Source of the DNA: Serinicoccus chungangensis
GTDB taxonomy: Bacteria > Actinomycetota > Actinomycetes > Actinomycetales > Dermatophilaceae
DNA: 64,000 bases
Reading direction: 5' to 3'
Assembly (NCBI RefSeq): GCF_001483745.1
Contig: NZ_LQBL01000028.1
Location: 600,379-664,378 of the forward strand
In this document: positions 1-63,161 of the stretch, one piece after another
Position numbering within the stretch: the first letter of the stretch is position 1
Layout of the letters: every line of letters begins with the position of its first letter
Program-made: the position numbers and the translations under genes
Notes under the pieces: generated by a model
Told to the model about the DNA's origin: nothing
What the model saw: only the letters and a program-made list of their open reading frames with translations
Database searches by the model: none

Positions 1-338
1 ATCCGGGCCAGCAGCTCCTGCGGCTTGAACGGCTTGACGACGTAGTCGTCGGCGCCGGCCTCCAGACCCAGGACGACGTCCTTGGTGTCCGTGCGGGCGG
101 TGAGCATGACGACGGGGATCCCGGACTCGGCGCGCAGCTCACGGCATACCTCGATCCCGTCCTTGGACGGCAGCATGACGTCCAGGAGGACGAGGTCGGG
201 GCGGAACTCGCGGAACATCGGCATCGCCCGTCCCCCGTCGGCGCAGCTCGCGACCTCGTAGCCCTCCTTGCGCAGCACGATGCCCAGCATCTCGGCCAGG
301 GCCTGGTCGTCGTCGACCACGAGTACTCGAGCGCTCAC
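1..338 (-). CDS. mtrA: Response regulator MtrA, receiver domain (partial, cut by window start)
   Basis: OmpR-family response regulator; in actinobacteria MtrA is phosphorylated by MtrB and controls cell wall and division genes. The 112 visible residues form a receiver domain: acidic pocket VVDDDQ near residues 7-12, phospho-acceptor Asp in LLDVMLP (about residue 55), T/S switch in VMLTA, and Lys in VKPFKP. The DNA-binding domain lies outside the window. The GTG start at 338 has AGGAGG 5 nt upstream. It lies 34 bp downstream of ahcY on the same strand; in M. tuberculosis tmk sits between them and is absent here. The codon pair for Val-Cys (GTA-TGC) forms one copy of the dispersed GGTATGCC motif. 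The MtrA assignment rests on sequence style plus ahcY neighbourhood. Confidence 0.9.
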   Translation of the reverse strand, partial: MSARVLVVDDDQALAEMLGIVLRKEGYEVASCADGGRAMPMFREFRPDLVLLDVMLPSKDGIEVCRELRAESGIPVVMLTARTDTKDVVLGLEAGADDYVVKPFKPQELLAR

Positions 339-372
339 GGGTTCCTCCTGCGTCTGTGCCCCTGCACCAGCA

Positions 373-1836
373 TCAGTAGCGGTAGTGCTCCGGCTTGAAC
401 GGGCCGGCCACGTCGACCCCGAGGTAGCCGGCCTGCTCCTTGGTCAGCTCGGTCAGGTCGGCCGCGACCGAGGCCAGGTGCAGCCGCGCGACCTCCTCGT
501 CGAGCTCCTTGCGCAGCGTGTGGACGCCGAGCGGGTAGGACTCGATCCGGGTGTGCAGCTCGATCTGCGCCAGCACCTGGTTGGCGAAGCTCGCCGACAT
601 GACGAAGCTGGGGTGGCCGGTGGCGTTGCCGAGGTTGAGCAGACGACCCTCGGAGAGCACGATGATCGAGCGCCCGTCGGTGAAGGTCCACTCGTGCACC
701 TGCGGCTTGATCTCCACCCGCTGCACGTCCGGCACCCGGGCGAGGCCGGCCATGTCGATCTCGTTGTCGAAGTGGCCGATGTTGCCCAGCACGGCCTTGT
801 CCTTCATCGCGGCCATGTGCTGCGGGGTGACGACGTCCTTGCAGCCGGTCGCGGTGATGACGAAGTCGGCCGAGCCGACGACGTCCTCCAGGCGGGCGAC
901 CTGGTAGCCGTCCATCGCGGCCTGCAGCGCGCAGATGGGGTCGATCTCGGTGACGATGACGCGGGCACCCTGACCGCGCAGCGCCTCCGCGCAGCCCTTG
1001 CCGACGTCGCCGTAGCCGCACACCACCGCGACCTTGCCGCCGATGAGGACGTCGGTGGCGCGGTTGATGCCGTCGATGAGGCTGTGCCGGCAGCCGTAGG
1101 TGTTGTCGAACTTGCTCTTGGTGACCGCGTCGTTGACGTTGATCGCCGGGAAGAGCAGCTCACCGGCCTCGTGCAGCTGGTAGAGCCGGTGCACCCCGGT
1201 GGTCGTCTCCTCGGACACCCCGCGGATGCCCTCCGCCACCCTGGTCCAGCGCTGCGGGTCCTCGGCCAGCGAGGAGCGCACGGTCTCCAGGATGACCTTC
1301 CACTCCTCGGGGTCCTCCTGCTGAGGGCTGGGCACCGCCCCCTGCCGCTCCCACTCCCGCCCCTTGAGCACCAGCAGCGTGGCGTCGCCCCCGTCGTCGA
1401 GGATGAGGGTGGGGCCGGCCCCGTCCGGCCACAGCATGACCTGGGTGGTGCACCACCAGTACTCCGGCAGGGTCTCCCCCTTCCAGGCGAAGACGGGGAC
1501 GCCCTGCGGCTCCTCGGGGCTGCCGTGCGGACCGACGACCACGGCGGCCGCCGCCTCGTCCTGGGTGGAGAAGATGTTGCACGAGGCCCAGCGGACCTGC
1601 GCCCCGAGCGCGACGAGGGTCTCGATGAGCACGGCGGTCTGGACGGTCATGTGCAGGGACCCGGCGATGCGGGCGCCGGCCAGGGGCTGCTCGTGGGCGA
1701 AGCGCTCGCGCAGGGCCATGAGGCCGGGCATCTCGTGCTCCGCGAGCCGGATCTGGTGCCGCCCCTGCTCGGCGAGCGCCAGGTCGCGGACCCGGTGCTC
1801 GAGCGCGGTGCCGGTCGTCGTCATGGTGTCGGGCAT
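373..1836 (-). CDS. ahcY: S-adenosylhomocysteine hydrolase
   Basis: NAD-dependent adenosylhomocysteinase of 487 residues, the usual actinobacterial length. It splits S-adenosylhomocysteine to adenosine and homocysteine, closing the methyl cycle in the cytoplasm. Seen: N-terminal substrate domain with [16 protein letters not shown], the NAD-binding Rossmann motif [12 protein letters not shown] near the middle, [10 protein letters not shown], and the conserved C-terminal KPEHYRY. The ATG start sits 6 nt after a TAGCAT -10 hexamer, so the mRNA is probably leaderless. That hexamer begins with the TAG stop codon of mtr, so ahcY can be transcribed independently of mtr despite the 9-bp gap. Confidence 0.97.
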
Positions 1837-61873: not shown

Positions 61874-62355
61874 GCCCACCCCCGCCGGGTCATCCAGCGC
61901 TCCAGCCGCATGACCACCGGCAGCACGAGCACCGCCACCAGCATCGTCACGGCCAGCGTCCAGGCCAGCTCGCCCGGGAGCGCCCGCCCGGCGCCCGCCG
62001 CCGCCGCCACGCCCCGGACGCCCAGGACCAGCGCCGCCGCCACCCCGGTGGCCACCCACGGCAGGACCGGTGACAGGACGAGCTGGCGGCGCACCGCGCC
62101 CAGCCCCAGACCGACGGCGGCGTAGACGAGGGCGCCCGCACCCAGCGGGGCAGCCCCCGGGGGCACCACGTCGACGAGCCAGCCCCCGGCCAGCCCGACC
62201 AGCAGACCGACCGGGGGTGGGTGCAGCAGCGCCACGCCCGCCACGACGAGCAGCACCAGGTCCGGCCGGGCCAGGCCGGCGGGCCAGGCGCTGGGCAGCA
62301 GCACCGCGGTCAGCAGGAGCAGCCCGCGGACGAGCGGACCCAGCAGGCGGATCAT
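61870..62355 (-). CDS. mreD: Rod-shape-determining protein MreD
   Basis: 161 residues, hydrophobic throughout with five to six membrane helices (e.g. LVLLVVAGVALLHPPPVGLLVGLAGGWLVDVVPPG). Family call depends on both hydropathy and location between mreC and mrdA. ATG overlaps the mreC stop by 4 bp. Confidence 0.88.
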   Translation of the reverse strand: MIRLLGPLVRGLLLLTAVLLPSAWPAGLARPDLVLLVVAGVALLHPPPVGLLVGLAGGWLVDVVPPGAAPLGAGALVYAAVGLGLGAVRRQLVLSPVLPWVATGVAAALVLGVRGVAAAAGAGRALPGELAWTLAVTMLVAVLVLPVVMRLERWMTRRGWA

Positions 62356-63161
62356 CCGTCCTCCCTGAGGACCACGGCGACCAGGTCGAGGGTGTCGGTG
62401 TCCACGAAGGGCTGGACGACGGCCGTGCTCCCGAGCTGGCCGCGGTCGGGGTCGACGGCGACGACGGTCCCCAGGGGGATGCCCGCGGCGTAGGGGACGT
62501 CGTCCGGGCTGCCCAGCGTGCTCACCCGGTCGCCGACCTCGATCCGGGTGTCGCCCAGCGCGGTGAGCGTGAGCTGACCGTGCCCGCGAGCCGGCAGGCC
62601 GGGTACCGGGTCGGCCTGGACGTCGCCGAGCGCCCCTCCCTCGCCGAAGCGCACGCCCACGACGACCTGCGGGTCGCCGAGCAGCAGGACGTCCGCGCTG
62701 GTCGGGGCCACCCGCAGCACCCGGCCGACGAGGCCCTCGACGGCGACGACGGTCTGGTCGGGCAGGACGCCGTCCTCGCGACCCACGTCGACGGTGACCG
62801 TCCGGCCCCCCACCGGCGTGCTGCCGGACGCGAAGGCGACCACCCGCGCCGGGAGCAGGGTCCGGTCTACCACGGCGGCGGTGCTGGAGCGGGCCAGCTC
62901 CTGCAGCTCGGCGGCGTCCCGCTCCTGGGCGCGCAGCCGGTCCACCTCGGCGGCCAGCGCGTCGCGCTCGGCGGTGAGCTCGGCGACCCGTCCGTCGTCC
63001 CAGCCCGCGAGCACCCGTTGCGCGGGCGCGAGCGCGGTGGCCACGGCGGAGCGGGCGGGGGCGGCGAGGCCCGGCCGGGCCAGGTCGACCACGAGCACCG
63101 CGGCGGTGGTGGCGAGGAGCAGGAGCGCGAGGAGGGAGGTGCGGGAGGGCATACCGGTCAT
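62352..63161 (-). CDS. mreC: Rod-shape-determining protein MreC
   Basis: 269 residues: N-terminal membrane anchor (SLLALLLLATTAAVLVVDLARPG), a coiled-coil around 60-85 (VAELTAERDALAAEVDRLRAQERDAAELQEL), then the beta-barrel periplasmic-type domain with VDVGREDGVLPDQTVVAVEGLVGRV and DPVPGLPARGHGQL. ATG 63161 overlaps the mreB stop; an in-frame ATG at 63152 is an alternative with AGGGA ahead of it. Confidence 0.92.
   Translation of the reverse strand: MTGMPSRTSLLALLLLATTAAVLVVDLARPGLAAPARSAVATALAPAQRVLAGWDDGRVAELTAERDALAAEVDRLRAQERDAAELQELARSSTAAVVDRTLLPARVVAFASGSTPVGGRTVTVDVGREDGVLPDQTVVAVEGLVGRVLRVAPTSADVLLLGDPQVVVGVRFGEGGALGDVQADPVPGLPARGHGQLTLTALGDTRIEVGDRVSTLGSPDDVPYAAGIPLGTVVAVDPDRGQLGSTAVVQPFVDTDTLDLVAVVLREDG

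What the first reader, a model, noticed from the sequence alone, without database searches (positions are those of the whole stretch)
143..63155. Dispersed 9-mer GGTATGCCG, far over-represented and overriding codon preference
I counted 31 exact GGTATGCC/GGCATACC octamers in 64 kb against about 2 expected from base composition, 27 of them extended to GGTATGCCG. They are near-evenly split between strands (15 and 16) and occur in every reading frame. They force rare codons: ATA in Gly-Ile-Pro (Trm112, LLM, paaD, mrdA), GTA in Val-Cys (mtrA and the response regulator at 31720), TAT in Tyr-Ala, GCA in Ala-Tyr. Selection at DNA level is the simplest reading. The lack of strand bias argues against Chi or KOPS and leaves a DNA-uptake-like signal, a methylation target or a binding site for a nucleoid protein.
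Basis: seen in the sequence. Interest (0 to 1): 0.8.

Follow-up and report, generated by a model that had tools for sequence, protein, structure and literature searches.

The report
Uptake-like DNA tags in actinobacteria
A nine-letter DNA word, GGTATGCCG, is repeated about 1,100 times in this actinobacterium's genome, and relatives carry the same word or close variants of it in a pattern that looks like the 'self' tags by which Neisseria and Haemophilus choose which free DNA to take up, though uptake itself has not been tested here.

Summary
Observation confirmed and far larger than the window. GGTATGCCG: 27 in the window (shuffles 0.29), 1,103 in the 3.56-Mb genome against 6 for the reversed word, 85 in sampled coding DNA against 3.6 (max 7) after synonymous-codon shuffling. 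It shows no strand or replichore preference. The genus is Ornithinimicrobium. In 186 genomes of its family the core GTATGCCG is bimodal: at least 100/Mb in 108, under 60/Mb in 72. Some relatives carry dialects one or two letters away: GGATGCCG (one genus of the family, and Microbacteriaceae, up to 4,287 copies), GTACGCCG, GAATGCCG, GGACGCCG, all GNAYGCCG. Sites resist codon preference; four of five phages examined carry GGATGCCG only at codon expectation, one exceeds it; inverted pairs are in excess. Best reading: it works like a DNA uptake sequence, probably with Tad/Flp pili, ComEA and ComEC; receptor unknown, uptake untested. Against: comEC and Tad genes are found with or without the motif, so gene content does not separate the two states. 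Chi-like, methylation and nucleoid-protein rivals remain, less likely.

The parts
142..150 (-). GGTATGCCG (GTA codon)
2145..2153 (-). GGTATGCCG
5500..5508 (+). GGTATGCCG
8948..8956 (+). GGTATGCCG
9475..9483 (-). GGTATGCCG
14724..14732 (+). GGTATGCCG
16135..16142 (-). GGTATGCC (8-mer only, followed by C)
20915..20923 (+). GGTATGCCG
21404..21412 (+). GGTATGCCG, in a CoA-transferase gene, frame 0 (Gly-Met-Pro)
22133..22141 (-). GGTATGCCG
27766..27774 (+). GGTATGCCG; an inverted core (CGGCATAC at 27707) lies 60 bp before it
29274..29282 (+). GGTATGCCG, in a purK-like gene
32228..32236 (-). GGTATGCCG (GTA codon)
32927..32934 (-). GGTATGCC (8-mer only, followed by C)
33469..33477 (+). GGTATGCCG
37792..37800 (+). 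GGTATGCCG
38047..38055 (-). GGTATGCCG
40265..40273 (-). GGTATGCCG, in a DUF885 gene
41806..41814 (-). GGTATGCCG
44204..44212 (+). GGTATGCCG (ATA codon)
49716..49724 (-). GGTATGCCG, in the polynucleotide phosphorylase gene
52126..52134 (+). GGTATGCCG, in a topoisomerase IB gene
52604..52612 (-). GGTATGCCG, in the same topoisomerase IB gene
53641..53649 (+). GGTATGCCG
54213..54221 (-). GGTATGCCG
57145..57153 (+). GGTATGCCG, in the PEP carboxylase gene
57592..57600 (+). GGTATGCCG, in the PEP carboxylase gene
57952..57960 (-). GGTATGCCG, in the PEP carboxylase gene
59619..59626 (-). GGTATGCC (8-mer only, followed by T)
61134..61142 (+). GGTATGCCG, in a penicillin-binding-protein gene, ATA codon
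63148..63155 (-). GGTATGCC (8-mer only, followed by C)

Best explanation
GGTATGCCG (core GTATGCCG) is a DNA-uptake-sequence-like 'self' tag of Ornithinimicrobium and relatives. A DNA receptor of the natural-transformation machinery would prefer DNA that carries the motif; the bound DNA would enter through ComEA/ComEC, probably with Tad/Flp pili as in Micrococcus luteus; and recombination of the preferred fragments would spread and maintain copies over the genome (molecular drive), in any frame and on either strand. Lineages whose receptor changed acquired dialects (GGATGCCG, GAATGCCG, GTACGCCG, GGACGCCG); lineages that lost specificity or competence lost the tags. SHOWN: over-representation beyond codon, Markov and shuffle controls; no strand or replichore preference; dialects; bimodal presence; retention of rare codons inside motifs; comEA, comEC and Tad loci in the host. 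INFERRED: that uptake selects the motif, that Tad pili carry the DNA, that one receptor reads it. The receptor is not identified.
For: 1,103 copies in the host; 85 against 3.6 after codon shuffling, and each dialect above the maximum of its shuffles. Dialects one or two letters apart that share G1, A3, G5, C6, C7 and G8 and reach thousands of copies in Microbacteriaceae, as DUS dialects share a core in Neisseriaceae (PMC3630211, passages). Bimodal presence: 108 of 186 family genomes at 100/Mb or more, 72 under 60/Mb; within one genus 4, 221 and 722/Mb. No strand or replichore preference in the samples. Rare codons inside motifs kept in 17 of 22 cases against 24 of 81 outside in G011 (p 7e-5), same direction in all five congeners; motif sites kept in 18 of 27 against a 33% base in G011. 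Four of five phages at codon expectation for GGATGCCG, 17 against 14.5 pooled. A motif-free 27.6-kb contig end bordered by a tyrosine integrase beside the tmRNA gene (chosen after seeing the list). Within 70 bp 27 opposite and 6 same-orientation neighbours, about 13.7 expected of each. Host has comEC and comEA and three Tad loci. The one Ornithinimicrobium of 31 without the motif (G023, 15/Mb) has a comEC that ends after profile position 150.
Against: Competence genes do not separate motif-rich from motif-poor genomes: comEC is matched in 54 of 55 and 43 of 43 family genomes, TadE in 35 of 36, and Tad-A orthologues occur in five motif-poor genomes. G023's comEC break lies within 100 bp of a contig end and may be an assembly effect. 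G015 has a comEC with an internal deletion yet 400/Mb GTATGCCG; G002, G018 and G265, with split comEC, are motif-rich. No type IVa pilus to carry a ComP-like receptor (PilM in 4 of 80). Site conservation is not significant in three of five congeners. Phage Efeko exceeds codon expectation, 12 against 3.3, maximum 7. A second motif-free gap of 20.6 kb in contig C2 holds, where I read it, ordinary-looking chromosomal genes. A small excess of GGATGCCG also exists where it is not the dialect: 39 against 25 (max 34) in four pooled motif-poor genomes and 51 against 37 (max 47) in the host. I found no transformation data for these hosts.
Confidence: 0.58

Rival explanations
1. A Chi-like recombination regulator: the motif attenuates a resident AdnAB, AddAB or RecBCD nuclease so that breaks in self DNA are repaired; different lineages use different words.
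For: Chi words are over-represented, asymmetric and lineage-specific (recalled); this motif is asymmetric and dialectal and not in excess in four of five phages.
Against: No replichore polarity: 64 against 80 of 144 in G011, an E. coli-like 75% (recalled figure) excluded at 7e-15, with base 1 taken as origin. No sense-strand bias in G000 (41 of 85) or G011 (63 of 113); weak in Humibacillus (99 of 164, p 0.01). Near-complete absence inside some genera (4 against 722/Mb in g26) is hard for a site of the main repair enzyme. The nuclease genes themselves were not searched.
Confidence: 0.14
2. A methylation or other DNA-modification site (solitary methyltransferase, BREX-like or phosphorothioation), over-represented because the mark has a use.
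For: An asymmetric word with mostly strict positions fits a protein that reads DNA letter by letter; patchy presence fits a horizontally moving enzyme.
Against: Recognition of eight or nine contiguous asymmetric bases is unusual for such enzymes (recalled); modification alone does not explain retention against codon preference. Not tested: no modification data were available and no methyltransferase survey was made.
Confidence: 0.1
3. A chromosome-wide binding site of a nucleoid or segregation protein.
For: Copies on contig C2 are spaced as at random (CV 1.05, random 0.79-1.22) and lie in and between genes.
Against: A site for an architectural protein should not be missing from 20 genera of the family while 25 hold 100/Mb or more; no polarity, so not KOPS; not confined to one region.
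Confidence: 0.1
4. No selected function: codon-pair, dinucleotide or mutational bias.
For: GGATGCCG and GGACGCCG contain common codons and their shuffled expectation is not small; the fourth-order Markov model explains part of the excess.
Against: Synonymous shuffles: GGTATGCCG 85 against 3.6 and 115 against 4.8, GGATGCCG 149 against 34 (max 49), GGACGCCG 64 against 26.6 (max 37); reversed word 6 copies; intergenic copies at least as frequent as genic; missing from family members of like G+C (0.72-0.73).
Confidence: 0.02

Closest known systems
DNA uptake sequences (DUS) of Neisseriaceae and their dialects (PMC3630211; passages read)
   Same: Thousands of copies per genome in the richest members, core of 8-10 bp, in and between genes, dialects differing by one or few letters around a shared core, some family genomes without any, inverted pairs between genes.
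   Different: Different phylum; dialects GNAYGCCG, not CTG-centred GCCGTCTGAA-type words; no type IVa pilus marker (PilM 4 of 80), and ComP itself was not searched; inverted pairs rare; uptake untested.
Uptake signal sequences (USS) of Pasteurellaceae (PMC12616744; passages read)
   Same: 9-bp core and two dialects that follow the phylogeny.
   Different: No A/T-rich flanks here: flanking columns carry at most about 0.5 bit; actinobacterial host; receptor unknown here.
Natural transformation of Micrococcus luteus (PMC4322843, passages; PMC6370729, passages)
   Same: Actinobacterial competence with comEA and comEC present and two tad (Flp pilus) loci required; the host here has comEA, comEC and three Tad loci.
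   Different: The passages I read mention no sequence preference; whether M. luteus carries an enriched word, and whether comG genes exist in the host here, was not tested.
Chi sites (recalled)
   Same: Over-represented short asymmetric words, lineage-specific.
   Different: No replichore polarity here.
HIP1 (GCGATCGC) of cyanobacteria (recalled)
   Same: Extreme over-representation of an octamer within one clade.
   Different: HIP1 is a palindrome; this motif is not.

Membership tests
DNA uptake sequence (DUS/USS) | Short word over-represented to hundreds or thousands of copies beyond composition and codon use | tested here: met
DNA uptake sequence (DUS/USS) | No marked strand preference; present in and between genes | tested here: met
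   (104,171 forward, 104,560 reverse summed over 186 genomes)
DNA uptake sequence (DUS/USS) | Dialects in relatives that share a core | tested here: met
   GGACGCCG rests on two 20-kb loci, GAATGCCG on one
DNA uptake sequence (DUS/USS) | Scarce in mobile or foreign DNA | tested here: inconclusive
   27.6-kb contig end with integrase, p 7.5e-4 but picked after seeing the list, 7.6 kb of it read; comEC prophages 2 in 23.5 kb against host flanks 6 in 22.5 kb; four of five phages at codon expectation, Efeko above it; genomes of those phages' own hosts not counted
DNA uptake sequence (DUS/USS) | Host has a DNA-uptake machine | tested here: met
   comEA, comEC, Tad loci in G000; but also in motif-poor relatives
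DNA uptake sequence (DUS/USS) | Inverted pairs acting as terminator hairpins | tested here: inconclusive
   27 opposite against 6 same-orientation pairs within 70 bp; five intergenic pairs with six or more extra paired bases, two of them probably one site in two congeners; termination not tested
DNA uptake sequence (DUS/USS) | A receptor that binds the word (ComP-type minor pilin) | tested here: inconclusive
   PilM 4 of 80; Tad minor pilins present but not shown to read the motif
DNA uptake sequence (DUS/USS) | The word enhances uptake and transformation | not testable with these tools
   needs bench work
Chi | Polarity with respect to replication on each replichore | tested here: not met
   64 against 80 of 144 in G011, base 1 of the closed contig taken as origin and its middle as terminus
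KOPS | Strong polarity towards the terminus | tested here: not met
Methylation site | Modified base in the motif | not testable with these tools
   no modification data
Dispersed repeat element (REP, MITE) | Homologous flanks around copies | tested here: not met
   flanks near background

The most novel reading that the evidence does not exclude
The first DNA-uptake-sequence system outside Pasteurellaceae and Neisseriaceae: a family of dialects GNAYGCCG carried by three actinobacterial families (that of Ornithinimicrobium, Microbacteriaceae, Propionibacteriaceae), read by an unknown receptor on a Tad/Flp-pilus uptake machine, evolved independently of the proteobacterial systems, gained, changed and lost many times, and interrupted by prophages that insert in comEC.
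Probability: 0.48. Interest if true: 0.92.

Novelty: new variant of a known kind. Interest (0 to 1): 0.86.

Why it matters
Sequence-tagged DNA uptake is known, to my recollection, mainly from two proteobacterial families that use type IV pili. A dialect system of up to thousands of tags in actinobacteria without type IVa pili would be an independent origin of the same trick. It would let the old question whether such tags arise from receptor bias or from a benefit of choosing kin DNA be tested over about 180 genomes with many apparent gains and losses. It could also be a practical handle: DNA tagged with the right dialect may make hard-to-transform environmental actinobacteria transformable. 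If it is not uptake, it is still a DNA word under strong maintenance for which I found no report.

Tried and rejected
Replication polarity: the place list showed only + sites for Humibacillus, which would have meant KOPS or Chi. Stretches of that genome show mixed strands; the list appears to be ordered by strand on long contigs, so the idea was dropped.

comEC loss as cause of motif loss: supported by G023 only. G015 (internal comEC deletion) looked low for GGTATGCCG (356) but has 1,520 GTATGCCG like its sisters: the base before the core is not fixed in that clade. G002, G018 and G265, with comEC split, are motif-rich; G209, split too, is motif-poor. G024 (570 contigs) gave no comEC match.

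Type IVa pilus as uptake machine: PilM (PF11104) in 4 of 80 genomes, two motif-rich and one motif-poor family members and one Leifsonia. TadE presence, Tad-A orthologues and, by eye, the ComEA C-terminal region do not separate motif-rich from motif-poor genomes.

Repeat element: flanks vary. Codon bias: rejected. With a fourth-order Markov model the excess of the 9-mer shrinks to 115 against 36, which I put down to the model having learnt the repeated 5-mers.

Papers, all searches of the open-access library: four terms on actinobacterial uptake sequences, none; the motif letters, none; the dialect letters, three papers whose titles are unrelated; searches listed no paper whose title or abstract start reports an actinobacterial uptake sequence (listings only, except the passages cited). 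No structure prediction was run. Conservation, dialect and hairpin counts use stretches, not whole genomes. G045 (one 20-kb stretch) was fetched but shown only.
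Full report
WHAT WAS CHECKED. In the window the motif is the strongest 8- and 9-mer under a third-order Markov model. Flanks of the copies differ. In the whole genome, 3.56 Mb in 33 contigs, there are 555 forward and 548 reverse copies against 3 and 3 for the word read backwards.

CODON CONTROL. I shuffled synonymous codons over all called genes of each sample, 20 times, keeping proteins and codon usage. Host: GGTATGCCG 85 observed, 3.6 expected, maximum 7; the complete congener G011: 115 against 4.8, maximum 8; Humibacillus GTATGCCG: 166 against 8.3, maximum 14. 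Sites occur in all six frame and sense combinations and force rare codons; 38 of 129 TAT and 12 of 31 ATA codons of the sampled host genes lie inside the octamer. My gene calls are crude (G+C by codon position), which weakens single placements more than totals.

WHOSE GENOME. Named loci with counts place Phycicoccus, Knoellia, Janibacter, Terrabacter, Humibacillus, Intrasporangium, Arsenicicoccus and Dermacoccus near it; that they form the family f1 (Dermatophilaceae/Intrasporangiaceae) is partly recalled.

SPREAD. Of 97 genomes, 59 are of the family and 38 of 19 other families of the order; the highest count of GGTATGCCG in the 38 is 49. Over 186 family genomes the core GTATGCCG is bimodal: 108 at 100/Mb or more (3 above 1,000/Mb), 72 under 60/Mb, 6 between; of 53 genera 25 are all high, 20 all low, 4 have both states and 4 are intermediate. 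Within one genus: g26 at 4, 221 and 722/Mb; g60 at 10 against 357-470/Mb (the low one, G161, is 89% complete); Ornithinimicrobium at 15 (G023) against 141-543/Mb in the other 30. Named counts of GGTATGCCG: O. tianjinense 1,258, Knoellia remsis 1,091, Phycicoccus elongatus 1,265, Humibacillus xanthopallidus 1,218, Intrasporangium oryzae 630, Terrabacter sp. 529; but Intrasporangium flavum 19, Janibacter indicus 7, Dermacoccus abyssi 20, Phycicoccus jejuensis 8.

DIALECTS. I looked for other over-represented words in ten genomes poor in GGTATGCCG (60-80 kb each). Two gave a strong one-letter relative of the core: G056 GGATGCCG (89 in 80 kb) and G053 GTACGCCG (62 in 80 kb); G054 gave GTACGCCG weakly. 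In the other seven (G031, G032, G038, G039, G040, G043, G044) no such relative led the list; the top word of G040 was the palindrome GGACGTCC (30 against 4.2, both strands counted). In 20-kb named loci GGATGCCG is enriched in nine Microbacteriaceae-type loci; three further ones (Leifsonia poae, Lacisediminihabitans, Cryobacterium) stay under my threshold, and one more (L098) does not have it among its top three words. GGACGCCG is enriched in two Propionibacteriaceae-type loci, GAATGCCG with GTATGCCG in one Phycicoccus MAG; family names of these are partly recalled. Whole-genome GGATGCCG: Microbacterium sp. 11MF 4,287 in 2.9 Mb, Leifsonia sp. Leaf264 4,009 in 4.5 Mb, Humibacter 3,363 in 3.9 Mb, G056 3,949 in 4.0 Mb, against 442 in O. 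tianjinense (3.3 Mb) and 757 in Arthrobacter alkaliphilus (4.1 Mb); values between occur, such as G031 1,336 in 3.5 Mb and L. poae 1,597 in 4.1 Mb. Because these words hold common codons I ran the same shuffle: G056 66 against 13.8 (max 19), Microbacteriaceae 149 against 34.1 (max 49), the three weaker Microbacteriaceae 18 against 7.4 (max 10), G053 GTACGCCG 52 against 12.0 (max 17), G054 26 against 10.6 (max 15), L055 GAATGCCG 11 against 0.7 (max 3), Propionibacteriaceae GGACGCCG 64 against 26.6 (max 37); on the other side GGATGCCG shows a small excess also in four pooled motif-poor genomes, 39 against 25.2 (max 34), and in the host, 51 against 37.3 (max 47). The excess of GGACGCCG in G000, G011 and G040 by a second-order model is not seen after codon shuffling in G000 and G011. 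All dialects fit GNAYGCCG. Single-mismatch counts suggest mostly strict positions 1-5 and freedom at 6 and 8 in Ornithinimicrobium, at 6 in G053 and at 8 in Propionibacteriaceae. The base before the core is mostly G in G000 and G011, C or G in Humibacillus, and not fixed in another Ornithinimicrobium clade.

POLARITY. The place list appears to be ordered by strand on long contigs and first misled me; stretches of Humibacillus and G011 show mixed strands. In G011, taking base 1 of the closed contig as origin (a recF-like gene, by its look, at 4.4-5.6 kb; dnaA was not verified), 64 of 144 sites point one way and 80 the other.

MAINTENANCE. Against 58-63 kb of aligned sequence in four congeners and 42 kb in a fifth, window motifs were conserved in 20 of 25 (G030, base rate 0.65 for 9-mers with three A/T; p 0.08), 18 of 25 (G029, 0.61; p 0.18), 18 of 27 (G011, 0.33; p 0.0004), 10 of 24 (G007, 0.29; p 0.13) and 7 of 16 (G017, 0.22; p 0.04). 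Rare codons inside motifs were kept more often than the same codons outside in all five (p 0.025, 0.004, 7e-5, 0.006, 0.12). Relatives also have sites that the host lacks.

MOBILE DNA. The first 27.6 kb of contig C2 has no copy (7.5e-4 at the density of the rest; chosen after seeing the list, so weaker than it looks). The last 7.6 kb of it, which I read, hold a phage-type tyrosine integrase directly beside the tmRNA gene, an ISL3 transposase and an ABC transporter; motifs resume past the tmRNA gene. Against this, another gap of 20.6 kb in C2 holds ordinary-looking chromosomal genes in the 7.2 kb that I read. The read parts of two prophages in comEC hold 2 copies in 23.5 kb, the host flanks 6 in 22.5 kb: low power. 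Five phages of Microbacteriaceae hosts hold 36 GGATGCCG in 186 kb, while two Microbacterium genomes, not those phages' own hosts, hold 1,266 and 1,478/Mb. In coding DNA four phages together have 17 against 14.5 after shuffling (8-21), Efeko 12 against 3.3 (max 7); pooled with Efeko 29 against 18.4 (max 26).

HAIRPINS. Within 70 bp I found 27 opposite and 6 same-orientation neighbours, about 13.7 expected of each; five intergenic pairs have stems of six or more further base pairs, two of them probably the same site in G000 and G011. This resembles the inverted DUS pairs of Neisseriaceae but is rare. Copies between genes are about as frequent as, or slightly more frequent than, their share of DNA (35 of 165 at 16% in the host, 42 of 242 at 17% in G011).

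MACHINE. The host has comEC, comEA with SLBB and HhH domains and three Tad loci with TadA-type ATPases and TadE/Tad-type pilins. In M. luteus, which has comEA and comEC, two tad loci are required for transformation (PMC4322843, passages; PMC6370729, passages). But comEC is matched in 54 of 55 and 43 of 43 family genomes, TadE in 35 of 36, and Tad-A is found in five motif-poor genomes, so these genes do not predict the motif. PilM, marker of type IVa pili, is in 4 of 80. A ComP-like type IVa receptor is therefore unlikely, and the reader of the motif is unknown. Retained uptake without specificity would explain motif-poor genomes with com genes, but that is inference.

VERDICT. Copy number, neutrality, dialects with a shared core, absence from whole genera, retention against codon use and inverted pairs are the marks of DNA uptake sequences; I put this at 0.58. 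It works like a DUS; membership is not established because receptor and uptake are untested and the mobile-DNA test is inconclusive. I found no report of it (open-access library only).

Noticed in passing
L034-L037 (genomes G002, G018); also G209 and G265: comEC is split at the codons of a conserved Ser-Gly-Ser-Asn stretch by an insert of about 40 kb with a large serine integrase and phage-type genes in two Ornithinimicrobium genomes, and comEC matches are split at about the same profile position in two other genera (28 kb apart in G209; on two contigs in G265). comEC looks like a recurrent phage attachment site. One search for comEC with prophage and serine integrase listed one paper of unrelated title.
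   Followed up: partly
L033:7003-9039 (G015): Single-contig Ornithinimicrobium genome whose comEC lacks much of its membrane-channel region by an internal deletion, yet has a normal GTATGCCG density.
   Followed up: partly
L038:1-7284 (G000:C2:20001-27284): Apparent right end of an integrative element in the host: tyrosine integrase beside the tmRNA gene, ISL3 transposase, ABC transporter, no motif.
   Followed up: partly
L241:10904-14962: A protein with FHA and two FtsK/SpoIIIE stretches (like type VII-secretion ATPases, recalled) is encoded directly beside the Tad-A pilus operon of the host.
   Followed up: no
L323 (Microbacterium phage Efeko): A 17.5-kb phage with 13 GGATGCCG, above codon expectation, unlike four larger phages of Microbacteriaceae.
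   Followed up: partly
L125 (Hamadaea tsunoensis): Palindromic GCGTACGC enriched, 30 against 3.4 by a second-order model in 20 kb, counted on both strands.
   Followed up: no
L080, L083, L109, L129 (Arthrobacter loci): CGACGGCG moderately enriched (16-19 against about 3-4 in 20 kb); possibly codon-driven.
   Followed up: no
L175-L178 (G040): Palindromic GGACGTCC enriched, 30 against 4.2 in 80 kb, counted on both strands.
   Followed up: no
   Followed up: no
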